A stretch of 12,271 nt of DNA from contig JANXDN010000006.1 of assembly GCA_025058005.1 (NCBI GenBank), positions 1 to 12,271 of the forward strand, given 5' to 3'. Each line of letters begins with the position of its first letter. Positions within the stretch are counted from its first letter, which is position 1. The position numbers and the translations under genes were made by a program. The DNA comes from Candidatus Aenigmatarchaeota archaeon. GTDB taxonomy: Archaea; Aenigmatarchaeota; Aenigmatarchaeia; CG10238-14. The notes under the pieces are model-generated. The model searched no databases. It worked only from the letters and a program-made list of their open reading frames with translations, and was not told the DNA's origin. Of the stretch, positions 769 through 12,271 are shown piece by piece.

Positions 769-1509
769 ATGGAAGTTAAGAGAATGGTCGCTGTAAAGGC
801 AAATATTTCTGATATATTAAATTCTACCTTTATCAAAAAGGATGGTTTAGAGCCGAGTTATGTTTTAACTAACATAGGTATGAAAATAGGTAAAGTTAAA
901 CTCATCGGCACAGTTGTGGACAAGTTCGTTAGCGAAAATGGAAATTATTCTACTATAACTATTGATGACGAATCAGGCAACATAAGAGTTAAAGTTTTCA
1001 GAGAAGATGTGAGTATACTTGATAACATAGAGATTGGAGATATGGTTGTGGTAGTAGGTAAGATTAAACAGTATGCAGATGAAATATACGTAATTCCTAA
1101 TTTTGTAAGAAAGGTTTTGGACCCTAATGTTTTTACATTACACAAGCTAGAAGTGCTAAAGGAGTTTTGTGAGCAAAAAAGCATTTTCGACTTGGTTTAT
1201 AACCAAAAAGACAATTTTGCCGATTTAGAAGAGCTGAAAAATTTTATGTTAAAAGAATACTTGATTGAAGAAGAAAGAATAAGTAGCATAATAGAGTTAA
1301 TGAGTGTTAAAGACAAAAAGTTTGAAAAGGAGTATAAATCTTTAATAATTGAAAAAATAAAAGAGTTGGATGCTGGTAAAGGTGTGGAACTGGCAAGACT
1401 TGCCCAAGAGGTAAGTGTGCCTATAGAAATACTAAGCAGTACAATAAATGAATTGCTTGAGGAAGGTACATGCTACGAGCCGTTACCTGGTTTAATAAAG
1501 TTGGTGTGA
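769..1509 (+). CDS. RPA32-like OB-fold single-stranded DNA-binding protein
   Basis: The 246-residue product has the layout of archaeal RPA-associated OB-fold proteins. A short N-terminal arm contains K-A-N-I-S-D-I-L. One OB-fold (about residues 41-117) shows the strand pattern K-L-I-G-T-V-V, Y-S-T-I-T-I-D-D, I-R-V-K-V-F, D-M-V-V-V-V-G-K-I and E-I-Y-V-I-P-N-F. A helical linker follows, then a C-terminal winged-helix-like domain (about 188-246). The expected role is binding single-stranded DNA in replication and repair, perhaps with RPA partners not in this window. The ATG at 784 (residue 6) is an alternative start: GGAAG lies 8 nt before it and the candidate TATA element is better spaced for it. 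The aIF2 beta gene follows after 1 nt, implying one transcript. Family-level confidence is good; whether it is the main RPA or an accessory subunit is not decidable here. Confidence 0.78.
   Translation: MEVKRMVAVKANISDILNSTFIKKDGLEPSYVLTNIGMKIGKVKLIGTVVDKFVSENGNYSTITIDDESGNIRVKVFREDVSILDNIEIGDMVVVVGKIKQYADEIYVIPNFVRKVLDPNVFTLHKLEVLKEFCEQKSIFDLVYNQKDNFADLEELKNFMLKEYLIEEERISSIIELMSVKDKKFEKEYKSLIIEKIKELDAGKGVELARLAQEVSVPIEILSSTINELLEEGTCYEPLPGLIKLV
1503..1506 (+). promoter_or_regulatory. Probable ribosome binding site for aIF2 beta
   Basis: GGTG sits 4 nt before the ATG at 1511 and overlaps the last codons of the upstream gene. Together with the 1-nt spacing this supports translation of both genes from one message. 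Confidence 0.4.
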
Positions 1510-1510
1510 G

Positions 1511-1921
1511 ATGAAGGAATACGAGAAAATGCTCGAGGAGGCTTTAAGCAAGCTTTCAGGAGAGAGTAAGTTGGATGTAAGGTTAGAAATACCTAAACCT
1601 GAAGTGATTATTTCTGGTAATAGGACTTTTATAAACAATTTTGGTGAAATTGCGAGTATTATAAGAAGAAAACCAGAACATATGCTAAAGTTTTTATCAA
1701 AAGAGCTAGCTTCTCCTGCGCACATAGAAGGTGGGAGGGCTATTTTTCAAGGAAAGTTGTATGCAAACCTAATAGAAAAAAAATTAGAGTCTTACTACAA
1801 AGAGTTCTTGTATTGTCCTGAGTGTAAAAAGCCTGACACACAAATAATAAAGCAAGATAGAATTTCTATATTGAAATGTGAAGCGTGTGGTGCAAAAACA
1901 CCTATAAGGCAAATAAAATAA
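1511..1921 (+). CDS. Archaeal translation initiation factor aIF2 subunit beta
   Basis: The 136-residue length and layout match aIF2 beta. The N-terminal helix Y-E-K-M-L-E-E-A (about residues 4-11) is of the kind that contacts aIF2 gamma. A central alpha/beta domain (about 24-98) carries the family-typical R-T-F-I-N-N-F and I-I-R-R-K-P-E-H segments. The C-terminal zinc ribbon has four cysteines (C102-x2-C105 and C123-x2-C126) within Y-C-P-E-C-K-K-P-D-T and L-K-C-E-A-C-G-A. As part of the aIF2 heterotrimer (alpha, beta, gamma) it helps deliver initiator Met-tRNA to the small ribosomal subunit in the cytoplasm. All four zinc ligands are present and the gene looks intact. It lies 1 nt after the RPA-like gene and probably shares its promoter. 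The related aIF5-type proteins share these domains, but the short form following a gamma-binding helix favours aIF2 beta. Confidence 0.93.
   Translation: MKEYEKMLEEALSKLSGESKLDVRLEIPKPEVIISGNRTFINNFGEIASIIRRKPEHMLKFLSKELASPAHIEGGRAIFQGKLYANLIEKKLESYYKEFLYCPECKKPDTQIIKQDRISILKCEACGAKTPIRQIK
1814..1888 (+). other. Zinc ribbon of aIF2 beta
   Basis: This stretch encodes C102-P-E-C105 and C123-E-A-C126, 17 residues apart, a Cys4 zinc-binding ribbon typical of the aIF2 beta/eIF5 C-terminus. Confidence 0.9.
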
Positions 1922-1953: not shown

Positions 1954-3474
1954 ATGAGAGTTTTTTTGTTGGTCATGCTAATAGTCTTTTTTAGTTTGAT
2001 GTTTTCCAAGGGTTTGGAAGAGGTTCAAACTTATGTGAATGAAAGTCAAGAAAATTCGTTTTCAGAAAAATTTGTGTTGGAAATAAAACCATACTATTTT
2101 TTTGGCGAAAAGTTTTCTTTTAATTTTTCTTGTAACTGCACTGATTTTCTTCTAAGCTTACTCGATGAATCGTTAAACTATAAAGCTAATGCAACTGAAA
2201 ATCTCACACTTGAATTTCCCCCTGGAAAGTATTATTTGGAAGCCAACATTTCTGGAGAACGTGTGTATTTAGCCCAATTTGAAATTATAGCGTCAGAAGT
2301 AAAAGTTTATCCAAGAATATTGTTTGTGAATGATAGCTTGTATATTGAGGTTAGAGATTATATTGGCAAAAATTTTGAAATAATAATCGAGCCATCTGGA
2401 AGCATATATAATTTTATAGCTCTTAACGAAACTTCGAAATTTTCATTAAAAATGGAGCAAAGTGGAAATTATACTATTCTGATAGATAATAAGAGTTTTG
2501 AAATAGAGGTTCTACCTTATTTAAATGCAAAAAAAGAGTTAAAAATAATTTTTGATGAGGAAAAATTTTTTGCAAATAAAACAATTAACTATAAAGTGAG
2601 TGGCTCTCCTCATACAGAATTTAAATTAAGCATTTTAAGAGATGTTATCTTTTTCCAAATTTTTGGAGCAACCGATGAAAATGGTGTTTATGCTGGGAAC
2701 TTTACTTTAAATAATGAAGGAAATTACACTTTGATGTTAGAATATGACAATACAAGCAAAGAATATGAGTTTTTTGTTCAAAATATAGAAGTAAAACTGG
2801 AGATTATAGAAATGCAAAAAGTCTATTGTGAGAATGTCTCCTTTTTAATAAAAGGTTCTGATAATACCGACTTTCACCTCTATTTCACTAGTGGAAATTA
2901 CACCAAAGTATACTCGCTTAAAACAAACTCTAGCGGTTTTCACTATTTTGAAGATAAATTTGAAGATGGAAAGTATAAAGTATATTTGATTGTGGAAGAT
3001 TTTAATGAAAGTAGAGAATTTGATGTAATGTGTGTTGAAATGAAAGAAACTGATTTTATTGGTGATAACAGCTATGTAGAATTGAGTGAAGATATATTTT
3101 CGGATGATGTTGGTTTAAAGGTGTATGGGAAAAATGTAACAATAAAATGCAACGGTAGAAAAATTGTAAGTAAAATAGGAATAAACGTTAAAAACTCTAG
3201 TGATGTTTTTATTGATGGTTGTTTCTTTGAAAAAAATTATTTTGCCTTGTTGGTTGAAAACTCTGAAAATTTGAGATTGAGTAATATCATTGCAGCAAAC
3301 AACTCTAACGGCATAATAATCAAGCGATCAAAAAATGTGGAAGTTGTTGATAGCATCTTAGAAGAAAATGATTTTTATGGCTTGCTGTTTTTTAATGTAG
3401 AAAATCCTTTGGTGAAAAATACAAAAGTTAAAACACAAACTAATATGGAAGTTTTGGCGAAATTGAAAGATTAA
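1954..3474 (+). CDS. Secreted Ig-like and beta-helix (NosD-type) surface protein
   Basis: The 506-residue product starts with a clear signal peptide (M-R-V then a hydrophobic core to about residue 18). About four beta-sandwich modules of roughly 85 residues follow (about 27-112, 113-187, 190-277, 280-358). Each ends in a G-[KN]-Y strand: G-K-Y-Y-L-E, G-N-Y-T-I-L, G-N-Y-T-L-M, G-K-Y-K-V-Y. Residues about 366-497 form short beta-helix rungs of the NosD/pectate-lyase type, entered by the motif I-K-C-N-G-R-K-I and continuing with repeated N-S-x-[DE]-[VL]-x-[IL] turns. Many N-x-S/T sequons imply an N-glycosylated extracellular location. No C-terminal membrane span or anchor is seen, so it may be released, held by partners, or shortened at its 3' end. 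Binding of carbohydrate or surface polymer is a common role for such folds, but no catalytic residues can be assigned. Confidence 0.78.
   Translation: MRVFLLVMLIVFFSLMFSKGLEEVQTYVNESQENSFSEKFVLEIKPYYFFGEKFSFNFSCNCTDFLLSLLDESLNYKANATENLTLEFPPGKYYLEANISGERVYLAQFEIIASEVKVYPRILFVNDSLYIEVRDYIGKNFEIIIEPSGSIYNFIALNETSKFSLKMEQSGNYTILIDNKSFEIEVLPYLNAKKELKIIFDEEKFFANKTINYKVSGSPHTEFKLSILRDVIFFQIFGATDENGVYAGNFTLNNEGNYTLMLEYDNTSKEYEFFVQNIEVKLEIIEMQKVYCENVSFLIKGSDNTDFHLYFTSGNYTKVYSLKTNSSGFHYFEDKFEDGKYKVYLIVEDFNESREFDVMCVEMKETDFIGDNSYVELSEDIFSDDVGLKVYGKNVTIKCNGRKIVSKIGINVKNSSDVFIDGCFFEKNYFALLVENSENLRLSNIIAANNSNGIIIKRSKNVEVVDSILEENDFYGLLFFNVENPLVKNTKVKTQTNMEVLAKLKD
3049..3444 (+). other. Right-handed beta-helix domain (NosD-like rungs)
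   Basis: Residues about 366-497 show short repeats of roughly 20-25 residues with alternating hydrophobics and Asn/Ser turns: G-I-N-V-K-N-S-S-D-V-F-I, A-L-L-V-E-N-S-E-N-L-R-L, G-I-I-I-K-R-S-K-N-V-E-V, G-L-L-F-F-N-V-E-N-P-L-V. There are only about five rungs, fewer than in typical enzymes of this fold. Confidence 0.7.
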
Positions 3475-3500: not shown

Positions 3501-4757
3501 ATGAAAAACATTACTATTTTTTTAGCAATTTTAATTTTCATACCTATTGTTCTTAGTATAGAGTGCGCATTAAGAGCTAGTTCTTGCAATAGCGGTGAGT
3601 TTTGTCTTTTTTCGAGATATCAAGAAAACAATAGCCATGTAGGCAATTGTTCTGCCTATTCGTTTTTAACCTGCTGCTCTGACCCTTATCTCAAAAAGGT
3701 GGAGATAAAATCTTATTGTGGTATAGGTGAAAATGGTACCATAGCGATGTTTAATTATACAAATGCTCATGCAGAAATCTATGACGCTAACAATTATGTT
3801 TATAAAGTATGCGTCAGTTGCCCTTGGATTTGCACTTTAAGAAATAATTGCCTATCTGGTGAGTATGCAATAGCTTCATTGAATGCTACTACAAATTCTC
3901 ATGTAGCATCACCTGGTTATTATGGAAATCAAGTCTGTTGTAAACGAGAGAATATATCGCCTAGTTACTCTAATCTTGGGCAAAACTCTAGCTCTGTTGA
4001 ATGGGGTGGTGCAGTGAAGCTTTATGCCTACTGGCAGGATAATGGTAACCTGTCTTATGCAATTTTATCAACCAATGAAACAGGTGCTTGGGAAAACAAA
4101 AGTGTCTACAACTCTCCTATAAATATAAATGCTAATAGTGGTTGGAGTAATTTTACTTGGCAAAATTCTTCTGTGTATGGTGGAGTTACAGTTGCGTGGA
4201 AAATCTATGCCAATGATAGTTGCGGTAATTGGAGGGAAACAAGTGTAAACACGTTTACCATCAATCAGATAATTTCATACCAAATTTCGCCCAAATTAAG
4301 TGAAGGTATATTTTTCACTAGTTTAAATGGATCAAAATATAACTTGCAAGAGAATATCAACATAAATAGTTGGAACAATGCTACGTGGAATTATAATCAC
4401 ACTCCACAACCTGGGGACAAAAAAACTTTGTATTGGTTGTATAACTCTGGAAATACTCCGCAAGACTTTTGTTTAAAGGCTAACACAAACTTGCTTTGTT
4501 CTACAGGTGGATGTATTGGGAATTATATCTCTGCTAATAGCATAGCGTGGCAAAATTCAACTACCAATAGCGAAACTGAACCTTCATTTGATACAACAAA
4601 AAGATTAAGCACTAGTTATGTAAAAATAGCCCAAAATGTTTTGCCAAATCAATATGTTTATTTCAGATTTTGGCTTTTCGGAGAAACTTATAAACCTTCT
4701 GGTGTTTACAACACAACTTTTACAATCAAAAATGTCCTAGTAGGACAAAGTTGCTAA
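3501..4757 (+). CDS. Secreted surface protein with triplicated Cys module
   Basis: The 418-residue product has a signal peptide (about residues 1-20; hydrophobic core I-T-I-F-L-A-I-L-I-F, probable cleavage before E21-C22). Three related Cys modules follow (about 22-59, 73-107, 111-147) sharing G-E, N-[SA]-H-[VA] and a closing Y-x(4,5)-C-C or similar. Residues about 150-257 form an Ig-like domain with the W-S-N-F-T-W-Q-N-S-S and I-Y-A-N-D-S-C-G-N-W pattern common in archaeal exoproteins. The C-terminal 160 residues are beta-rich, contain W-N-N-A-T-W-N-Y-N and four cysteines, and end in a final Cys. Sequons are frequent. There is no transmembrane anchor, so it is probably secreted or held at the surface by partners. 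It follows the Ig/beta-helix gene by 26 nt, and the two may form one surface-protein unit. The 3' end overlaps the convergent coiled-coil gene by 21 nt. Confidence 0.75.
   Translation: MKNITIFLAILIFIPIVLSIECALRASSCNSGEFCLFSRYQENNSHVGNCSAYSFLTCCSDPYLKKVEIKSYCGIGENGTIAMFNYTNAHAEIYDANNYVYKVCVSCPWICTLRNNCLSGEYAIASLNATTNSHVASPGYYGNQVCCKRENISPSYSNLGQNSSSVEWGGAVKLYAYWQDNGNLSYAILSTNETGAWENKSVYNSPININANSGWSNFTWQNSSVYGGVTVAWKIYANDSCGNWRETSVNTFTINQIISYQISPKLSEGIFFTSLNGSKYNLQENININSWNNATWNYNHTPQPGDKKTLYWLYNSGNTPQDFCLKANTNLLCSTGGCIGNYISANSIAWQNSTTNSETEPSFDTTKRLSTSYVKIAQNVLPNQYVYFRFWLFGETYKPSGVYNTTFTIKNVLVGQSC
3564..3941 (+). repeat. Threefold Cys/NxH protein module
   Basis: Copies at residues 22-59, 73-107 and 111-147 share the order Cys, G-E, [MSL]-F or A-S, N-[SA]-H-[VA], Y, then C-C (C-V-x-C in copy 2). 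The anchors are N-N-S-H-V-G, T-N-A-H-A-E and T-N-S-H-V-A. The copies are divergent in DNA, so the duplication is old. Confidence 0.65.
4734..4746. terminator. Palindrome at convergent gene ends, possible two-way terminator
   Basis: GTCCTAGTAGGAC has 6-nt arms around one base and can fold as a 5-bp stem with a 3-nt loop. On the minus strand it is followed one base later by a T5 run; on the plus strand a T5 run follows about 11 nt downstream. It lies inside the 3' ends of both convergent genes, a sensible place to stop both transcripts. The stem is short, and archaeal termination does not need hairpins. Confidence 0.35.
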
Positions 4758-5924
4758 TTTTTGTTCAAAAATTTCTTTTATTTCATTGTTTTGGTAATAC
4801 TCCCAAGCGTTCTTCAGCCAATATAATGTTTTTTTGAATAATTCTTGTGTATAATTGTCCCACATATTAAGCTGTGACATTTTGTTTTTAATCATATCTA
4901 TTTCACCAAGAATTTTTACTATTTCTTCTTTTGTCGAAGACATTAATAGCATATTGATAAGTTGTAAAAACTTTATTTGTAAGTGCATGTGATTTTCTTT
5001 GCTTGGTAAACTTGTTTTTAATGAGTTTATTAACATCACAATTTCGCTGGTTGTATTAACTAGTTTTTGTTTTTCAGCTTCTATTTCTTTTTTCGCATCA
5101 ACCTTTGTTTGCTCTATAATAGTTTTTAACTCAACCAAATAGTTTTTGTTTAATTCTTGCATGTTTTTTTTCACCATCTCTTCTATAAGTTTTTGCGCTC
5201 CATCTTTTTCTATTAATTTTGGTACTTTGAGACTTATGCTATCAAGCATTTTAACTAAATCCACTGTTAAATCATCAAGCTTTTGCACTTTAGCTTTCAT
5301 GTTTTCAACATCTTTAATTTTGCTCTCCATCTCAGTAAATATAGTTTCTGTTTTCCCAGCTAATCTATCCACATACATTTTTGCGTCATCTATCATTTGA
5401 ATTTTTTCATTCAGTTTGTTATACATGGAAATCAAATTGTCCAAGCTTTTTATTTTTTCAAGTATAACTCTCAGGGATTGATTATCCCTTTTCAACACGG
5501 CTATTATAGCTTTTAAAGCTTCTATATCTGTTTGTAGCTTTAAAATCTCTGCCTCTTTTTTTTGCAATTCTTTGCCAAATTTTTCAGGTTGTATCTCGCT
5601 AACAACTTGTATTGTTTTTTCAATTTTTGCTTCTAAAGAAGTGAAATTTCTATCAAGTTCTAAAAAGGAAGATCTTAACTCACCTATTTCTTCAGACAAT
5701 CTTGCCATTCTTTCATTTATATCATCTTTAATGCTTTCAAAAACAGAAAATCTTCCCTCAAGTTTTTCAACTCTTAAAAGTAAATCTAAGGAGTTAACTT
5801 CAGATTTTTCCTGTGTTTTGACATTTTTCTCATTTTCTTTAACTTGCTGCACAGGTATTTCTTTTGTCACACCATATCTTGCTTTTAATTCTTCCTTTTT
5901 ATCATTTTTCTTCGGTAAAATCAT
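4737..5924 (-). CDS. Coiled-coil protein coupled to the giant membrane ATPase
   Basis: The 395-residue product has no signal peptide or membrane span and is probably cytoplasmic. A basic, polar N-terminus (about 1-43) precedes heptad-rich helices (about 44-230), with segments such as L-L-L-R-V-E-K-L-E and I-G-E-L-R-S-S-F-L-E-L. More helices follow, ending in a compact-looking C-terminal bundle (about 310-395) that contains W355, W369 and W374. Its ATG overlaps the ATPase stop as ATGA, so the two are almost certainly one operon with coupled translation. Because the ATPase tail is cytoplasmic and also helical, a direct scaffold or adaptor role is a reasonable inference. The layout loosely recalls helical accessory subunits of archaellum or secretion machines, but I see no defining motif and assign no family. 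The 3' end overlaps the convergent surface gene by 21 nt. Confidence 0.8.
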   Translation of the reverse strand: MILPKKNDKKEELKARYGVTKEIPVQQVKENEKNVKTQEKSEVNSLDLLLRVEKLEGRFSVFESIKDDINERMARLSEEIGELRSSFLELDRNFTSLEAKIEKTIQVVSEIQPEKFGKELQKKEAEILKLQTDIEALKAIIAVLKRDNQSLRVILEKIKSLDNLISMYNKLNEKIQMIDDAKMYVDRLAGKTETIFTEMESKIKDVENMKAKVQKLDDLTVDLVKMLDSISLKVPKLIEKDGAQKLIEEMVKKNMQELNKNYLVELKTIIEQTKVDAKKEIEAEKQKLVNTTSEIVMLINSLKTSLPSKENHMHLQIKFLQLINMLLMSSTKEEIVKILGEIDMIKNKMSQLNMWDNYTQELFKKTLYWLKNAWEYYQNNEIKEIFEQKLATLSY

Positions 5925-8900
5925 TTAACCAACCCTAATTTTTTATTTAAAGATTCTATGTAAATTTCCGACACTCTGAACATACCTTTCTTTAGCTTAT
6001 CCTTAGCAAGCTTTAACTCTATCTTTAAATCAAACACATCCCTTCCTTCTTTCTCCAACCTTTCAATCTCCTTTTCTATTTTTTCAATTCTGAGATTATA
6101 ATCTTTATACATTTGTAGCTCTTGTTCTGTTATCTTGTGAGGCATATGCATAGGCGGTCTGAAAGAAACGAACCAAGGCAAACCTTTATTGTATTTTGGA
6201 TGTTGCACCATACCTATACCCACTTCTTCTTTTGCAACTCTTCTTGCATATTCTAAACCATACTTTTTCTCTATTCTCTGCAAATCGCTTAAGCTCTTGG
6301 TGTGCATTTGTATTTCGGTAAGCACATTACCTTTTATCGCTTCTTTGAAGTCAGATAAAACTTGCGAAACCATTATCAAGCCTATGCCCCACTTTCTAAA
6401 TTCTCTGCACGCTCTCTCCAAAGCTACATAGCCGCCTTTGCCGCCATATTTCTCTAAGAGTCTATGCACTTCATCAAAAACTATTATGAGTTTGGGTGTT
6501 GTTGATTCTTCCCATGGTTGACTGAAAATTGAATTTATTATGTTGGTGACTGCTTCGTCATATTCTCCTGGTTTTAGTTTGTTCAGCACGAAAACCGTTA
6601 TTTCACCAGGATTCATATATTTCTTAAAGTCAATTTTTGTTTTCGGATCTGTCATCTCATATATATTACCTGGATAGGATTTTGCATCATCTATTGTCAT
6701 ATTATGCATCTTGTAATATTTCAACACGTTTTCATCTTTACAAGGTTTAACAAAACCTGTCCATTGAGCTGTGGGGTCAAAGACTACCACAGGTATTTTT
6801 TTCTCTAATAACTCTTCGGCTAATATGCTTGCCGTAACAGACTTTCCAGCACCGGTTGCACCTGCTACTAGTATGTGTGTAGTCAAATCATTTGAGTTGA
6901 AAAATGCCTTTATGTTTGTCTCGGCTATTTTACCTATAGCTAAATCTCCTCTTGGAAGCAAGGAAAAATCTACTGGGAAGATATATCTTAATTTTGCCTT
7001 TCTCCAGGCAATATACTTTCTAAAGACTACTATCGACAAAATAACCGTCGCAACAGCAACTGAAGCTATTAAAACATATCTTATCGTCTTAGCAGTTATC
7101 AAGCCTAGAGTAATTTCAAAACTATCAAGAGAAGATAAAATCTCTTTATCATAAGTTGCGTTTACTATGATATAATATTTACCAGCGGAGATGTTTTCAG
7201 GTAGGTGAATGTATTTTATAGAATGATAAGGCGTTTTTACCTCAACAAGCTCTCTTTTATGGTAAATAATGCTATCGCCTTTTAGTGATTTGATTGTATA
7301 GCTAATCTCTGAGACAAATTCTTTTTTGTGCGTTAAGCTGAAAATGTTAAGTTCGAAAGCCAAAGTTTCATTTGGTTTCAATGTTTTGGTAATGGTTTTA
7401 ACTAATAATTGTAATTCGTAAGGTTGTTTGGTTACAAAAATTGTGAATGGCAATCTTTCTTTTCTATTGATGCTTGAAACTATTATTTCTCCTGTATAAG
7501 TGCCAGCTTCGATATTATCAGGTAAATTCAAGTCTATTATTATTTCTTTTTCTTTTTGTGGCAAAACATTAACAGCTTTTTCTCTTACATTTAATAAACT
7601 TGATGCCGGGCCACTTGTCATTATATTTACCTGTATGGGCTGTGTCAGCATGTTTAAAACCCACACTGCATAAGTTCTTTTTGTTGCCGGAGAAACATAA
7701 TCGGTTGTAAGATTTGTTTTTACACTAAAAGTAGAAATACAATCTTGTGGGCAAGAAAATGGATTTTCATCTTCATCACATATACCATTGCCACAATATG
7801 ATCTATATCTTTCTCCACCCCCTCCGCCTCCTCCTGCAGAAGATAGCTGGTTATTGGTTAAACCACTTCCGCATTCACCGCAATCAGCTACACAATTGAG
7901 GCAGGACTCTCCTGTGCCACAAATCTTATTACCACATATTTCTGCTTCAAATGCATAATAAGCTGAAGCGTTTGTTTGAATTGTGTAAACTTTCTGGTTT
8001 TCTGCATCTAGGATTGTGTCTACTTGAACCCAACCGCTAGAGCAAGAACCATTCCACTCGTTGCATTTATAGATAACTATTGCTGGAGCATAATCTATTT
8101 CATTAACTTTTTTTGAATAATCGAAATATACTGTTAGGTTGGAGAATGCAAAATTCGTTGATAGATAAATTCCTCCTATTTCATGTCTCCAGGGGACTGG
8201 TGGATTTAGTAAAGCCAAAGGAATTATTGAAATGTTTAATGGGTTTGTTATATTGCTCACTTCGCCAAACTGTTTTTGAGAGGTTAAAGTTGTGTTCAAA
8301 TCATTAAATATTATAAAGTGGTTTTGGTTTATATCATCATTAATTTCAACTTTTAAATCATAAGTTCTTCTATGCAAAGTCAAATTATGCCATCCACTTG
8401 GATATGTATAATTGTGAACTATTAGCGAGCTCCCCGGCCTGTAAAATGTAAATCTTTTTGGATAGGTTGTTTCAGCATAAAGCTGTATAGGCAAATAAAC
8501 CTCAAACCATGTGGTGGCGTTGCTTGTGAAGTTTGAAGTATCGTTGGCATAAACAACTATGTCATAATCTCCCAATGTTTTCATGTTTGTAAAGTTTGCT
8601 TCCCATATTGTTTGCCTTTTGTCAGGAGTTGTGTTGAAAAGCTTTATATCATATTTTGTTCCATTTGGGTAAGATACTTTTGCCCAAACAGCATCAACGC
8701 CATACCAATCTGTAATATTTGCTTGCAGCACTGTGTTGCCATTTAAAATGGTGGAGTTGATTGTTAATTTGTTTATTTTTGGTGGCATCGTATCTTTTTC
8801 TATTATCAATATGTCTGCAAAATCTATTGGCGTGGAAGCATTATATTTCCTATAAGCATCCAAACTTTGGCTTGTTATGTTGCAAAGTATTCTATACCAT

Positions 8901-11900
8901 CCTTCTGGCACTTGCTCTGCTGAAGAAATATTCCAAGTATAATTTACTCTTCCTGTAGGATAAAGTGTGTTTAAGCTTGCGATCACCGTGGAATTACCTT
9001 CATATATTTTAACAATATCCACTTTGTAACCATCTAATTTTATAGTGGTTGTGTTTGCATCTGTAACCTCACAAACTATATCTATTTTTCTCTCGGTCTC
9101 TGTTCTATTATAAGTTCCGTTTAAGGGCTGAAGCATGCTAACTTTCGACCATCCATAAATGTCTATACTCCTGCTTACTAAGCTTGTCTCATATAATTCG
9201 CCAGAAGTTGTTAAAGAAATCAACAATATACCAGGGTTACATTCTACTTGCCAAGTAGTGTTTGTTGCAGAAATTGTTGTGGAATAAGGCGGATAGCCAT
9301 GAGTCGTGCAATTCAATTTCCATAAAGAGTTATAGCTTTGTTCGGGTATGCCACAAGAGCCTAAAGCAGAAAAAGACAAATTCATAAGCTCTCCTTTATG
9401 ATAAATAGAATTTGGATATGGTGAGATTATGCTTGTGTTTAATTGCTCCTTTAAATACACATACTTTTCGTCGCTAGCCTTGCTATAGATATAATAATTA
9501 TTTGGATTTCCTGAAAGTGCGACAGTTAAATTGTATTTGCCTAACTCATTATAACAGTCTGGTTGAACTCTTAATAAGCAAATACCAGAAGCGCTTGTTT
9601 GGTTAATGCCAAGAGAGGTTTGGTTAAAAGTAAACAAACACTGATAGCCTGGCTGATTTATTGTTTGACCAAACTCATCGAATATTTTTGCTTTCAATAT
9701 TTTTTGTTTGTTTCTTGTTATATTCCCTACGCTATCTTCAGTTAAATTTATGTTAATCTTACCGTAAATATGAAGGGTAAAGTTTTCCGATAAGCTATCG
9801 TTGTAGTAATTATCGTCATAAACACCTGCTTTCCACCATCTTAATCCGGGCAGATAAGATGAGTTTGGCGTAAATTGATAATTGCAATAACCAGATGAGT
9901 TGCTAAAAGTATCATAGTGAAGCCAATGAGTATCATTAATGCTTGTCCAAAGTCTGCATCTGACATTTGAAACGTTTTGGTTAATTATAGTGTCGTTTAT
10001 TAAAACACTTAGCAAAATAGTTTCTGTTCTATTAACTGAATTCTTATCTGTAGCAAGTATTACTTGAGTTGTATGTTTTGTTACATTAGGCCAATAATAA
10101 ATTGAAGATAAAAACCAATCGTGATATTCTGTGTTCTCGTCAAAATCTCTTAGATAAATTGCTAGAAGATTATTGCCTGTCCATGTTTTATTGCTTTCAA
10201 GCAAAAACGCCATCTCTTCTCCTGTTATTGTATTTCCAGTAGAATTTTTTTCTGCAAAACAATTCCACACAATTGAAGATAAGTTTATTGTGCTTAAATT
10301 AAATGTTCGCGTCAAATTTAAACAAACCATAGCGCTAATGTTATTTCCTTCTGTGTCGCTTATATTAAATTTTAAAGTGAAATTTTTTCCCCAAAAGTCT
10401 TCTGCTGGTGAAAAGGAAATGTTAGAGATTTGTGGAGGGTTGTTTGCAGAACCAGATATTTCATAAACTGTATGAGTTTTATTGCTATTAGGCTGTTTCC
10501 AAATAAAAAAATCTACTCTACCGTCACTGTTTGTGTCTTGCTTGCACACATAAAACGTGTAATTTTCAAGAATTATAGAAGTATAAGTTGGGTTGTTTGA
10601 ATTGCAATCGTTTTGAGTGTTTGAAGGCGTGATGTCAAAAAGCGTGCCATTATTAAACCAATCGACTTTTATTTTCGTGTTACCAGTAATATAGCTCTCA
10701 TCCAAAGTTGTGTTTACTGTTATATTGAAGAAGATGGTGGTTGTTGCATTCCATACGGTTACATTCTTCTTCCAAAAACCTCCTTGGGATATGCCTTGTG
10801 TTTCATTGTAATAAATTGCTACTGCTTTGCTCATTGTGTCATCCAAAACATAATCATAACCGAGTTCACCAACTACAGGTAGAAGTCGTTGATTTAAAGA
10901 AATATTGCAAACTTTTTTCCCATTTATTAAAGCTGTGGGGTAACTGCTACCGTTGAAATCGCATACTGTAGCTGCTGGGTTAACGGTTATGTATTTAAAT
11001 CCTATTTTGTGAAATGGATTAAACAAATAGGTGATGTTCCTTATTTGATTGCCTACACTTTCATTTGCTTTTATGTTTTTTATTCTTGACCAGCTTGAGA
11101 TTGTCTCTATAGAAAAGATGTTGGAAATGTTGTAAGTATAAGTGATGTTTATAGATGAAATTTTCAAAATTCCTGGAAAAGATGAATAAAATAATAATGG
11201 CACAGAACATGCTCCTCTATCATCTTGCTGGCATGAGTTTAAGTAGCTTTGAAACGCCGAATTGTTTGAGATTTCTGCTTGCGATCTAAACTTGCCTGTA
11301 TAAGACCACTCTATTTGGCTATCACTACCTATATCCAAATAAGGATTTGTTGGGAAGTATTCAAAATTCAAAATATGTAAGGTATTTGTTGCAGGAATTA
11401 TTGTACCAGCGACTACTTCGTTGCCCATATCTGCTGTTAGATTGCCGATAGAAATGCCTTTAACATCATTCTCTGTTTTGTATTTCCAAACTAAAACGCC
11501 ATTTCTACTAAGCACATATAGGTAATCATCTACACTGCCGAATACTATTTCTTTGCCTTCATACTCTGTGGTGACCTCTTCGATTTTAATCTTGTTAATC
11601 ATGTTATAGCCTATCGAATAAGACCACAACACATTTAAACTGCTGTCAAGCAAATAAACCGTGCCGTTGGTGGTTGCTAATGCTATCTCATCATAGCCTG
11701 TATTATCTGCGTTATCAACATCCACATCATTTAAATTTCCTATATTTTTTGTTGCAATTACACTACCGCTTGCATTTAATATAAAAACATCTCCACTAGT
11801 AACTGCAACTATTTCTTTCCCTGTGGATGTAGCAAGCTCACCTACTCCAACTCCTTTAAAAGATAAGCCAGTAGAATAAGACCACATCTCGTTTAATGTG

Positions 11901-12271
11901 TGATTTAACAAATACACTTTGTCAGAAGCTATTACAATTTCGTCAAACAAGTTTGTTTCATTTATATTACTGACTTCTATCTCTTTTATATCATCACCCA
12001 TAGTTTTTGAAGCCAATAAATGACCAGAAGAATTCAGCAAGTATAAAATTCTTTCGGATGAAGCTGCAACTATTTCTTTACCAGCATTAAAGCTAAGGTT
12101 ACCAGCACTCACAGCAGTAATAGAGGCTGAGATGCTGTAATTCCATATTTGATGCCCAGAAGCATTTAGTAATTTTAAATTTTGATCAGAGCCAGCAACG
12201 CCTACAACAATCTCATCCCAATTATTGCTTTCGATAATATTGTCTACAAACAAATCAAAGATTTGTTGTTG
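5921..12271 (-). CDS. Giant surface-anchored HerA/FtsK-like ATPase (5'-truncated)
   Basis: The frame is open to the right edge (2116 residues visible, numbered here from the edge); the TTG at 12253 is probably internal, and a signal peptide must lie off-window. Order: beta-propeller-like repeats (about 1-300); a Cys-containing beta region; a D-x-N-x-D-G-x-x-D calcium-type loop (579-587); several Ig-like modules (about 610-1440); two CGNGxC-type cysteine motifs (1446-1467, 1493-1511) separated by seven glycines; two membrane-proximal beta-sandwiches (about 1512-1730); one transmembrane helix (about 1733-1750) followed by R/K-rich sequence; then a P-loop ATPase with Walker A G-A-T-G-A-G-K-S (1804-1811) and Walker B I-I-V-F-D-E (D1933, E1934); and a charged helical tail. 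Sequons are abundant before the helix and nearly absent after it, supporting an outside N-terminus. The ATPase belongs with HerA/DUF87-type pumping ATPases; substrate unknown. The gene is coupled to the coiled-coil gene downstream. Confidence 0.85.
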   Translation of the reverse strand, partial: QQQIFDLFVDNIIESNNWDEIVVGVAGSDQNLKLLNASGHQIWNYSISASITAVSAGNLSFNAGKEIVAASSERILYLLNSSGHLLASKTMGDDIKEIEVSNINETNLFDEIVIASDKVYLLNHTLNEMWSYSTGLSFKGVGVGELATSTGKEIVAVTSGDVFILNASGSVIATKNIGNLNDVDVDNADNTGYDEIALATTNGTVYLLDSSLNVLWSYSIGYNMINKIKIEEVTTEYEGKEIVFGSVDDYLYVLSRNGVLVWKYKTENDVKGISIGNLTADMGNEVVAGTIIPATNTLHILNFEYFPTNPYLDIGSDSQIEWSYTGKFRSQAEISNNSAFQSYLNSCQQDDRGACSVPLLFYSSFPGILKISSINITYTYNISNIFSIETISSWSRIKNIKANESVGNQIRNITYLFNPFHKIGFKYITVNPAATVCDFNGSSYPTALINGKKVCNISLNQRLLPVVGELGYDYVLDDTMSKAVAIYYNETQGISQGGFWKKNVTVWNATTTIFFNITVNTTLDESYITGNTKIKVDWFNNGTLFDITPSNTQNDCNSNNPTYTSIILENYTFYVCKQDTNSDGRVDFFIWKQPNSNKTHTVYEISGSANNPPQISNISFSPAEDFWGKNFTLKFNISDTEGNNISAMVCLNLTRTFNLSTINLSSIVWNCFAEKNSTGNTITGEEMAFLLESNKTWTGNNLLAIYLRDFDENTEYHDWFLSSIYYWPNVTKHTTQVILATDKNSVNRTETILLSVLINDTIINQNVSNVRCRLWTSINDTHWLHYDTFSNSSGYCNYQFTPNSSYLPGLRWWKAGVYDDNYYNDSLSENFTLHIYGKININLTEDSVGNITRNKQKILKAKIFDEFGQTINQPGYQCLFTFNQTSLGINQTSASGICLLRVQPDCYNELGKYNLTVALSGNPNNYYIYSKASDEKYVYLKEQLNTSIISPYPNSIYHKGELMNLSFSALGSCGIPEQSYNSLWKLNCTTHGYPPYSTTISATNTTWQVECNPGILLISLTTSGELYETSLVSRSIDIYGWSKVSMLQPLNGTYNRTETERKIDIVCEVTDANTTTIKLDGYKVDIVKIYEGNSTVIASLNTLYPTGRVNYTWNISSAEQVPEGWYRILCNITSQSLDAYRKYNASTPIDFADILIIEKDTMPPKINKLTINSTILNGNTVLQANITDWYGVDAVWAKVSYPNGTKYDIKLFNTTPDKRQTIWEANFTNMKTLGDYDIVVYANDTSNFTSNATTWFEVYLPIQLYAETTYPKRFTFYRPGSSLIVHNYTYPSGWHNLTLHRRTYDLKVEINDDINQNHFIIFNDLNTTLTSQKQFGEVSNITNPLNISIIPLALLNPPVPWRHEIGGIYLSTNFAFSNLTVYFDYSKKVNEIDYAPAIVIYKCNEWNGSCSSGWVQVDTILDAENQKVYTIQTNASAYYAFEAEICGNKICGTGESCLNCVADCGECGSGLTNNQLSSAGGGGGGGERYRSYCGNGICDEDENPFSCPQDCISTFSVKTNLTTDYVSPATKRTYAVWVLNMLTQPIQVNIMTSGPASSLLNVREKAVNVLPQKEKEIIIDLNLPDNIEAGTYTGEIIVSSINRKERLPFTIFVTKQPYELQLLVKTITKTLKPNETLAFELNIFSLTHKKEFVSEISYTIKSLKGDSIIYHKRELVEVKTPYHSIKYIHLPENISAGKYYIIVNATYDKEILSSLDSFEITLGLITAKTIRYVLIASVAVATVILSIVVFRKYIAWRKAKLRYIFPVDFSLLPRGDLAIGKIAETNIKAFFNSNDLTTHILVAGATGAGKSVTASILAEELLEKKIPVVVFDPTAQWTGFVKPCKDENVLKYYKMHNMTIDDAKSYPGNIYEMTDPKTKIDFKKYMNPGEITVFVLNKLKPGEYDEAVTNIINSIFSQPWEESTTPKLIIVFDEVHRLLEKYGGKGGYVALERACREFRKWGIGLIMVSQVLSDFKEAIKGNVLTEIQMHTKSLSDLQRIEKKYGLEYARRVAKEEVGIGMVQHPKYNKGLPWFVSFRPPMHMPHKITEQELQMYKDYNLRIEKIEKEIERLEKEGRDVFDLKIELKLAKDKLKKGMFRVSEIYIESLNKKLGLVK
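6140..6958 (-). other. Cytoplasmic HerA/DUF87-type P-loop ATPase domain
   Basis: Residues about 1772-2044 hold an ATPase core with L-V-A-G-A-T-G-A-G-K-S (Walker A, bases 6839-6862), V-V-F-D-P-T-A-Q-W, L-I-I-V-F-D-E-V-H-R-L (Walker B with catalytic Glu), R-E-F-R-K-W-G (possible arginine finger region) and G-L-I-M-V-S-Q (sensor-type Gln). The S-Q and D-E-x-H features are those of HerA/FtsK/VirB4 pumping ATPases, which act as hexamers. Only about 53 residues separate the membrane helix from Walker A, so there is no room for a full HAS-barrel as in HerA. No NurA gene is visible nearby. Confidence 0.85.
7022..7075 (-). other. Single transmembrane helix of the giant ATPase
   Basis: Residues 1733-1750 are an uninterrupted run of V, L, I, A, S, T and F, followed at once by R-K-Y-I-A-W-R-K-A-K-L-R. 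The positive cluster on the ATPase side places the C-terminus in the cytoplasm and the long N-terminal part outside. Confidence 0.9.
7739..7936 (-). other. Paired CGNGxC cysteine motifs with poly-Gly linker
   Basis: Residues 1446-1467 begin C-G-N-K-I-C and continue G-E-S-C-x2-C-x3-D-C-x2-C. Residues 1493-1511 read C-G-N-G-I-C-x3-E-x4-C-x2-D-C. This pattern is common in archaeal and bacterial exoproteins. Between them lies S-S-A then seven glycines (1480-1486), encoded by mixed codons, which should act as a flexible hinge between the Ig-like stalk and the membrane-proximal part. Confidence 0.8.
10511..10537 (-). other. Calcium-type DxNxDGxxD loop in the ectodomain
   Basis: Residues 579-587 read D-T-N-S-D-G-R-V-D, a canonical EF-hand-like or thrombospondin-type-3-like calcium loop, followed by F-F-I-W-K. 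It sits at the junction between the propeller-proximal beta region and the first Ig-like module. Confidence 0.65.
11372..12271 (-). other. Beta-propeller-like repeats at the outer end of the ectodomain
   Basis: About six to seven divergent repeats of 40-46 residues are visible, each with a [VL]-x-[IVL]-L-N/D-x-S-G or similar turn, a W-x-Y or comparable strand, and a closing G-K-E-I-V-A or D-E-I-[VA] strand (PQQ/FG-GAP-like). Examples of the closing strand are G-K-E-I-V-A-A, F-D-E-I-V-I-A, G-K-E-I-V-A-V, Y-D-E-I-A-L-A and G-N-E-V-V-A-G. Blades may continue beyond the right edge of the window. The fold is a likely ligand-binding head. Confidence 0.75.

What the first reader, a model, noticed from the sequence alone, without database searches (positions are those of the whole stretch)
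5921..12271. A HerA/FtsK-like ATPase fused through one membrane helix to a giant ectodomain
Pumping-type ATPases usually carry small N-terminal domains. Here at least 1732 extracellular residues (propeller, Ig-like stalk, Cys knots) precede a single helix and a compact cytoplasmic ATPase. If it hexamerises as its relatives do, six propeller-tipped stalks would project from one ring. Inferred role: a surface machine coupling contact or ligand binding outside to DNA or protein movement, or assembly, inside. DUF87-type ATPases with exported modules do occur in archaea, but I know of no characterised function for this architecture.
Basis: partly seen in the sequence, partly recalled or inferred. 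Interest (0 to 1): 0.8.

Follow-up and report, generated by a model that had tools for sequence, protein, structure and literature searches.

The report
Giant archaeal surface ATPase, SPEARE kind
A tiny archaeon carries a huge cell-surface protein whose inner end looks like a ring-type molecular motor; it belongs to an already described group of giant proteins thought to let such archaea grip and exchange material with other cells, and its usual partner gene is pointed out here.

Summary
Window 5921-12271 (-) is one open frame of 2,116 codons, cut only by the contig end: beta-propeller, sequon-rich ectodomain, one membrane helix, intact HerA/FtsK-fold ATPase. Three separate same-genus assemblies have the same colinear protein (2,204-2,210 aa), so no assembly join.

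The architecture is known. The ATPase is 53% identical to that of the published SG9 giant and homologous to SVXNc_0300 and BNXNv_0298, whose genes I identified by exact lengths. It is a smaller member of that kind in Aenigmatarchaeota; laminin-G, reported for SPEARE sensu stricto, was not found.

Not found in the papers read: (1) an all-helical cytosolic coiled-coil gene follows the ATPase gene at 78 of 93 testable loci (window 4737-5924); (2) 24 of 97 loci add a second exported protein family; (3) in four nanohaloarchaea the adjacent short-ectodomain ATPase looks homogenised with the giant's (clear in one genome, supported in a second, unresolved in two), suggesting mixed rings; (4) a case in Hydrothermarchaeum.

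Best mechanism (inferred): adhesive stalk on a ring motor at cell contacts, probably moving substrate; direction and cargo unknown. No ATPase structure model was obtained.

The parts
5921..12271 (-). Giant surface ATPase ORF, 2,116 aa shown, N-terminus (about 94 aa with signal segment) cut off by the contig end
11417..12187 (-). beta-propeller (PQQ/FG-GAP-like), about residues 29-285
   Evidence: Pfam; PDB sequence matches
7562..11281 (-). rest of ectodomain (stalk), no Pfam family above cut-off; sequon-rich; colinear in three same-genus orthologues
7880..7936 (-). Cys motif CGNxxC..C..DC, residues 1446-1464
7739..7795 (-). second Cys motif, residues 1493-1511
7097..7561 (-). membrane-proximal region, residues 1571-1725 (Ig-like by inference only); lies in the stretch shared with the giant paralogue of the genus
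7022..7078 (-). membrane helix, residues 1732-1750
   Evidence: hydropathy
6137..6949 (-). cytoplasmic HerA/FtsK-fold ATPase, about residues 1775-2045
6839..6862 (-). Walker A GATGAGKS, residues 1804-1811
6464..6481 (-). Walker B/catalytic Glu VFDEVH, residues 1931-1936
6386..6406 (-). REFRKWG motif, residues 1956-1962, aligns with HerA REGRKFG (trans-arginine role recalled, not tested)
4737..5924 (-). coiled-coil partner gene, 395 aa, overlaps the ATPase stop by 4 nt; predicted all-helical, no hydrophobic segment above 1.6

Best explanation
The window encodes the two core parts of a cell-contact machine of the SPEARE kind. The first is a surface stalk tipped by a beta-propeller, anchored by one helix to a cytoplasmic HerA/FtsK-fold ATPase. 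The second is a cytosolic coiled-coil protein translated right after it. Shown by sequence: domain order, topology signals, intact and strongly constrained ATPase, conserved gene pair, and homology to the published giant proteins. Inferred: the ATPases form a ring at the membrane base; the stalks bind a partner cell or surface; the coiled-coil protein connects the ring to a substrate or to other parts; ATP hydrolysis moves a substrate (protein or DNA) across the contact. Where a short-ectodomain paralogue is co-encoded, long and short subunits may share one ring. My odds: same family as the published giants 0.9; adhesion/contact role 0.75; translocation of a substrate 0.5.
For: Homology: in SG9 the window ATPase matches the giant (53% identity, 9.4e-131), the short ATPase (56%, 1.8e-136) and the 3,315-aa ORF (43%, 1.8e-90). 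Genomes G200 and G201 have exactly the published lengths of SVXNc and BNXNv (948,351 and 1,046,959 bp), and their ATPase-bearing giant ORFs span 28,230 and 26,643 nt by the coordinates, exactly the published gene lengths. ATPase: catalytic motifs invariant in 39 of 39. dN/dS is 0.018-0.032 in the three of four pairs where it could be estimated, against 0.06-0.28 in ectodomain segments that gave an estimate; dS is high throughout, so these are rough. Gene pair: partner at 78 of 93 testable unique loci, 68 of them within 160 nt. Mixed ring: the adjacent ATPases of B1-Br10 and BNXNv group by genome (100, 90) while the four short copies group together in the membrane-proximal part (100). Published biology (passages read): SPEARE peptides by mass spectrometry (PMC6642349); 9-11 nm cytoplasmic bridges and raised methylation at symbiont motifs in host DNA in the SVXNc coculture (PMC11001535), not tied causally to the protein.
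Against: No recurrent neighbour looks like a secretion part: besides the coiled-coil gene the recurrent ones are two families of exported proteins (24 and 16 of 97 loci) and a MinD-like gene (6 of 97) (not scanned against Pfam). No pore protein or effector was identified. The family is patchy (55 of 156 genomes of the window's phylum by my count) and occurs in Hydrothermarchaeum, which is not a DPANN archaeon (recalled), so it is neither essential to nor exclusive to ectosymbionts. The HerA HAS barrel is missing and the ring is inferred only. Homogenisation is unresolved in SVXNc and SG9: some between-species ATPase identities (up to 80.5%) equal the within-genome ones (79.0-84.7%). Fifteen of 93 loci lack a detectable partner. 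The partner's predicted fold has no PDB match at E<=0.001 (0 of 148).
Confidence: 0.55

Rival explanations
1. Adhesin with an energy-using anchor: the ATPase ring and coiled-coil protein cluster, position or retract the adhesin (or signal contact) and nothing is translocated.
For: Most of the protein is ectodomain; the recurrent neighbours beside the coiled-coil gene are exported proteins (24 and 16 of 97 loci); at several loci the operon holds a short protein with an exported part and usually a second hydrophobic segment but no ATPase.
Against: Well-studied members of the superfamily are translocases or pumps (recalled), and the ATPase is the most constrained part.
Confidence: 0.25
2. DNA uptake motor: the ring pulls host or environmental DNA into the cell, analogous to CedB/CedD in the crenarchaeal Ced import system.
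For: CedD is the best NCBIfam model for the window ATPase (3.1e-18); 36 of 36 members hit it, but 36 of 36 also hit a HerA model. CedD has a TM domain and a HerA/VirB4/CedB-like ATPase and is needed for DNA import, not export (PMC11868833 passages).
Against: The score is far below the CedD cut-off (65.8 of 600 bits), and the same genome's HerA-like gene on C61 scores higher in the whole-genome search (77.8 against 44.2), so closeness to CedD is not specific.
Confidence: 0.2
3. Component of a true type IV secretion system injecting effectors, as proposed for SVXNc (PMC10266531).
For: Published proposal. The TrwB coupling-protein profile passes its cut-off in the short ATPases of SVXNc (20.9 of 20.5) and BNXNv (23.8 of 20.5). 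Cytoplasmic bridges were seen in the SVXNc coculture.
Against: PDB and Pfam profiles rank HerA/DUF87 first. PF03135, reported for SVXNc_0299, is not among Pfam hits at E<=0.01 of the ORFs in that position in SVXNc and BNXNv or SG9. No recurrent neighbour looks like a T4SS gene.
Confidence: 0.15

Closest known systems
Giant membrane-anchored surface proteins of nanohaloarchaea: SPEARE (PMC6642349), SVXNc_0300 and BNXNv_0298 (PMC10266531)
   Same: Signal segment, long ectodomain (propellers and Ig-like in SVXNc_0300), one C-terminal membrane helix, same cytoplasmic ATPase family, coiled-coil gene nearby downstream
   Different: Window protein about 2.2 kaa rather than 8-9 kaa; no adjacent second ATPase gene; no laminin-G found; different phylum
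Archaeal HerA (PDB 4d2i)
   Same: Best solved sequence relative; RecA-like core with P-loop, Walker B and REGRKFG-type motif
   Different: No room for the N-terminal HAS barrel (25 residues between helix and aligned core, 118 in HerA), about 70 residues fewer between the two aligned blocks, membrane-anchored, coiled-coil neighbour instead of NurA (HAS and NurA recalled)
CedD / CedB of the Ced DNA-import system (PMC11868833)
   Same: TM-anchored HerA/VirB4-like ATPase
   Different: No giant ectodomain in the passages read; score far below the CedD cut-off
VirB4/TraG/TrwB ATPases of type IV secretion
   Same: Same superfamily; TraC and TraD models hit; TrwB profile passes its cut-off in two nanohaloarchaeal paralogues
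   Different: In the window TrwB is below cut-off (14.1 of 20.5); no T4SS-like recurrent neighbour

Membership tests
Giant membrane-anchored surface ATPases (the kind that includes SPEARE) | Cytoplasmic domain homologous to that of published members | tested here: met
   53%, 56% and 43% identity to three SG9 ORFs; SVXNc/BNXNv genes identified by exact genome and gene lengths
Giant membrane-anchored surface ATPases (the kind that includes SPEARE) | Most of the protein outside, one membrane helix near the C terminus | tested here: met
SPEARE sensu stricto (PMC6642349) | At least one laminin-G domain in the ectodomain | tested here: not met
   No laminin-G in the window, while the 3,315-aa SG9 ORF has it (7.3e-40). 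The 3,078-aa C-terminal piece of the SG9 giant shows none at E<=0.01. So I file the window with the wider kind, not with SPEARE in the strict sense
[quoted passage not shown]
   No protease family in the window. ResIII reaches 22.5 bits, equal to its cut-off, but over the ATPase and behind DUF87. PMC10266531 rejects the endonuclease reading
Nanohaloarchaeal giant operon | Adjacent second ATPase gene | tested here: not met
   Window has the coiled-coil gene directly after. Only 8 of 105 unique ATPase ORFs are followed by a second ATPase, so a subgroup trait
HerA | N-terminal HAS barrel and NurA partner (recalled) | tested here: not met
   HerA residues 1-118 unmatched, 25 residues available; neighbour is a coiled-coil gene; the genome has separate DUF87 genes on C61 and C47
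HerA/FtsK superfamily (fold) | P-loop, Walker B and RExRK motifs | tested here: met
   39 of 39; Pfam DUF87 and HerA_C above cut-off
CedD | Score above curated cut-off (600 bits) | tested here: not met
   65.8 bits
Type IV secretion (VirB4) | PF03135 domain and T4SS gene context | tested here: not met
   T4SS genes elsewhere in the genomes were not searched for
FtsK | FtsK_SpoIIIE profile above cut-off | tested here: not met
   18.6 bits against a cut-off of 24
Any ring translocase | Hexamer formation and ATP-driven movement | not testable with these tools

The most novel reading that the evidence does not exclude
DPANN archaea and a few neighbours share a contact machine that is not a type IV secretion system: a membrane ring of HerA-like ATPase subunits whose ectodomains range from about 200 to over 11,000 residues, with gene conversion keeping the motor halves interchangeable where long and short subunits are co-encoded, with a dedicated coiled-coil cytosolic adaptor and, in a subset, a second large exported protein. 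A ring would then carry a few giant stalks among short subunits and pump across the contact.
Probability: 0.3. Interest if true: 0.82.

Novelty: new member of a known kind. Interest (0 to 1): 0.55.

Why it matters
How DPANN archaea attach to and exchange material with hosts is open. This links some of the largest proteins of these cells to a motor and, with the coiled-coil partner, gives a defined gene pair that can be tested in existing nanohaloarchaeal cocultures. It also bears on two published points. The second ATPase beside the giant is a short member of the same family with its own signal segment and membrane helix; the 655-aa 'version' listed for SG9 in PMC6642349 is probably this gene. 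And the SG9 ORF of 3,315 aa, described there as 'reversed', carries the ATPase at its C terminus.

Tried and rejected
Assembly join or frameshift: rejected by three colinear same-genus ORFs. Viral copies: the IMG/VR scan gave 28 pattern matches, none a relative. CedD orthology: rejected as unspecific. Archaellum FlaC/D/E identity of the partner: only 2 of 30 members hit FlaC_arch, weakly. Other Pfam/NCBIfam hits of the partner look like generic coiled-coil matches; PDB profile and fold searches gave nothing usable. Giant paralogue in the window's own genome: not found, but the genome is 74% complete. Regular pairing of the two ATPase clades: not obligatory (54 genomes; clade labels assigned by me from the tree). 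Literature searches. Supplements could not be read. That the coiled-coil partner is unreported rests on section 11 of PMC10266531 read whole and on passages of PMC6642349, PMC9563170, PMC9765267 and PMC11001535.

A first neighbour clustering suggested the coiled-coil gene was the only conserved neighbour. Its largest cluster had merged 84 partner ORFs with 59 others; a stricter run without partners showed two further exported-protein families.

Limits of the counts. The partner model was built from 30 sequences of loci later counted (A2), so those are not independent. The single-sequence search found 35 partners, itself included, in 41 regions, 39 of which hold an ATPase. One search shows 80 of 303 confirmed relatives, biased to close ones. 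Four of 118 sequences were left out of the tree as too short.
Full report
WHAT IS THERE. The window is the whole contig G000:C86 of a 511-kb, 74%-complete genome. Its closest named matches are records titled Candidatus Aenigmatarchaeota. The minus-strand frame 5921-12271 is open for 2,116 codons to the contig end; chance of this at 33% G+C is about 1e-71. Order from the N terminus: beta-propeller; over 1,000 residues with no Pfam family above cut-off; two Cys motifs; a membrane-proximal region; a membrane helix (1732-1750); an ATPase (about 1775-2045); a short tail. Topology: 79 sequons and 30 Cys before the helix, 1 sequon and 2 Cys after it, and a basic stretch right after it. Complete orthologues in G024, G025 and G026 are 2,204-2,210 aa, start with a hydrophobic segment and are colinear. 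dN/dS of the ATPase is 0.018-0.032 in the three of four pairs that gave an estimate; ectodomain segments that gave one lie at 0.06-0.28, others being saturated.

THE ATPASE. Walker A, Walker B with catalytic Glu, and REFRKWG are invariant in 39 of 39 sequences. A profile of 36 members finds archaeal HerA 4d2i first in the PDB (4.2e-14), then HerA-like helicases; DotL and FtsK are weak. The HerA HAS barrel has no counterpart: HerA residue 119 aligns with window residue 1775, 25 residues after the helix. NCBIfam's best model for the window domain is CedD (3.1e-18), with HerA second (9e-14), but the genome's HerA-like gene on C61 scores better against CedD. I file the domain as a separate branch of the HerA/FtsK superfamily. 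Hexamer formation is inferred, not shown.

IT IS A KNOWN KIND. Papers on nanohaloarchaea describe SPEARE proteins up to 8,553 aa, mostly outside, with a C-terminal membrane helix and a conserved inner domain, with similar sequences in Woesearchaeota, Aenigmarchaeota, Micrarchaeota and Altiarchaeales but not Nanoarchaeota or Parvarchaeota (PMC6642349, passages). A later paper re-read the inner domain as a VirB4/TraG-like ATPase and proposed secretion 'straws' (PMC10266531, section 11 read whole). I tested membership directly. In the SG9 genome the window ATPase matches three ORFs: the giant (8,573 aa from its first start by my coordinates, published 8,553), a 625-aa ORF and an ORF of exactly 3,315 aa, the published length of SPEARE 3. 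Genomes G200 and G201 have exactly the published lengths of SVXNc and BNXNv, and their giant genes span 28,230 and 26,643 nt, as published. Against strict SPEARE membership: laminin-G, reported for all SPEARE ectodomains, is absent from the window though present in the 3,315-aa SG9 ORF (7.3e-40). So the window is a member of the wider kind of giant membrane-anchored surface ATPases. The earlier 'restriction endonuclease' label is probably due to the ResIII profile, which scores these domains below DUF87.

THE GENE PAIR. The gene after the window ATPase (4737-5924, overlap 4 nt) encodes a 395-aa protein without a strong hydrophobic segment, predicted all-helical with a confident C-terminal helical part (mean pLDDT 77.1, pTM 0.29) and without PDB match at E<=0.001. 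With the window protein alone as query, 35 partners including itself were found in 41 regions. With a profile, of 105 unique ATPase ORFs 8 were first members of a tandem pair and 4 had no room; of the remaining 93, 78 have the partner on the same strand within 1.3 kb, 68 of them within 160 nt. Of 107 profile hits among 938 ORFs, 106 lie beside an ATPase (redundant loci included; the odd one is next to it on the other strand). In SVXNc the partner is the 520-aa ORF after the second ATPase; section 11 of PMC10266531 does not mention it.

OTHER NEIGHBOURS. With partners removed and stricter clustering, two further families recur among the 97 loci. One, at 24 loci, all downstream (17 same strand), is a large exported protein whose complete members run from 358 to 2,073 aa, many with an N-terminal WWN.SWHYR-type motif and a C-terminal tail resembling that of some coiled-coil partners (by eye). 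The other, at 16 loci, is also exported, about 1,000-1,100 aa where complete. A MinD-like gene is at 6 loci. None resembles a T4SS part by eye; I did not scan them against Pfam.

LONG AND SHORT SUBUNITS. In SG9, SVXNc, BNXNv and B1-Br10 the order is giant, 623-628-aa ATPase, coiled coil. The second ATPase has a signal segment, about 210 outside residues, a helix at about 235-255 and the same ATPase. Its ATPase DNA is 79.0-84.7% identical to that of the giant in the same genome; between genomes like copies are 70.8-80.5%. The ATPase tree groups copies by genome for B1-Br10 (100) and BNXNv (90) but leaves SVXNc and SG9 unresolved (51-67). In the membrane-proximal 230 aa, within-genome identity is 35-45% and the four short copies group together (100). 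I read this as one old duplication with homogenisation of the motor half, clear in one genome and supported in a second. Tandem pairs in L093, L094, L108 and L134 are also sisters within a locus, though these may be separate duplications; L102 is unresolved. At seven loci (L059, L064, L086, L114, L124, L125, L128) the middle gene is a 233-315-aa protein without ATPase; five of the seven show both an N-terminal and an inner hydrophobic segment above threshold, L086 only the first and L124 only the second. That long and short subunits share one base is inference.

DISTRIBUTION. Genomes with an ATPase match at E<=1e-30: window's phylum 55 of 156 (my count), SG9's phylum 15 of 28, phylum of the Pacearchaeota-titled L114 67 of 371, phylum of the Altiarchaeota-titled L124 5 of 10, phylum of L130 (titled Micrarchaeota, listed as Microcaldota) 1 of 19, phylum of Hydrothermarchaeum profundi 1 of 23. 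The Hydrothermarchaeum gene spans 32,508 nt inside a 1.9-Mb contig, followed by a 271-aa stub and the partner; one case of 23 suggests transfer. The IMG/VR scan found none. The window's genus has a second, giant paralogue of 11,259 aa in G024 and 11,248 aa in G026.

MECHANISM. Shown: outside stalk, inside motor domain, conserved partner gene, strong constraint on the motor. Inferred: ring, contact function, substrate movement. Published observations that fit but do not prove it: SPEARE peptides by mass spectrometry, with inner and outer parts in different gel fractions, and cytoplasmic bridges with symbiont-type methylation in host DNA. For a T4SS link: the TrwB profile passes its cut-off in two short ATPases. 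Against: HerA/DUF87 rank first, PF03135 is not found at that gene in SVXNc, BNXNv or SG9, and no T4SS-like neighbour recurs.

NOT DONE. The ATPase structure job was never accepted, so there is no fold comparison for the motor and no complex model.

Noticed in passing
L068:1316 to L069:15092 (G024:C2) and L071/L070 (G026:C12): Single ORFs of 11,259 and 11,248 aa with the same ATPase, about 4% of a genome of about 0.8 Mb; the N terminus has several hydrophobic segments by eye. Longer than the 9,409 aa reported as the largest protein of cultivated archaea.
   Followed up: partly
L224:2-3892 and L223:5724-11999 (G356:C23): A 12,057-aa open frame of the same family whose start looks like a winged-helix domain by eye; N-terminal domain unverified.
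   Followed up: partly
L220:6187-16134 (SG9): ORF of exactly 3,315 aa, the published 'reversed' SPEARE 3, has laminin-G near its N terminus, the ATPase at its C terminus and a coiled-coil partner next to it.
   Followed up: yes
e.g. L146:13169-19087, L097:13848-20069, L124:13111-18771, L128:4782-10502: A second large exported protein family recurs downstream of the gene pair at 24 of 97 loci; several members end in a tail like that of the coiled-coil partners. Possibly a third component.
   Followed up: partly
L215, L217, L219: In SVXNc, BNXNv and SG9 another long ORF with an N-terminal hydrophobic stretch is transcribed divergently from the start of the giant gene.
   Followed up: no
L171:101-3893 (G000:C61): A 697-aa HerA-like gene follows two small genes with pilin-like N termini (by eye) in the window's own genome.
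   Followed up: partly
G116:C1:248403, G101:C13:29621, G186:C31:1217, G159:C2:326013, G188, G189: Some ATPase matches contain one in-frame stop (TAG, TGA or TAA); decay, recoding, match overrun or assembly error not distinguished.
   Followed up: no
L094:13309-14304 (-): A partner homologue directly after the tandem ATPases but on the opposite strand, the only such case of 107 profile hits.
   Followed up: no
window 769-1509 (+) and 1511-1921 (+): OB-fold (RPA-like) gene and translation initiation factor IF2B/IF5-domain gene, ordinary archaeal housekeeping genes.
   Followed up: partly
window 1954-3474 (+) and 3501-4757 (+): Two further exported-looking proteins, the first with a right-handed beta-helix (NosD-like) domain.
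   Followed up: no
L075, L131, L136: Copies on contigs labelled Heimdallarchaeota (L075, L131) and Omnitrophota (L136). L075 and L131 pair with Aenigmatarchaeota sequences in the tree (support 100), so likely binning errors; L136 was too short for the tree.
   Followed up: partly
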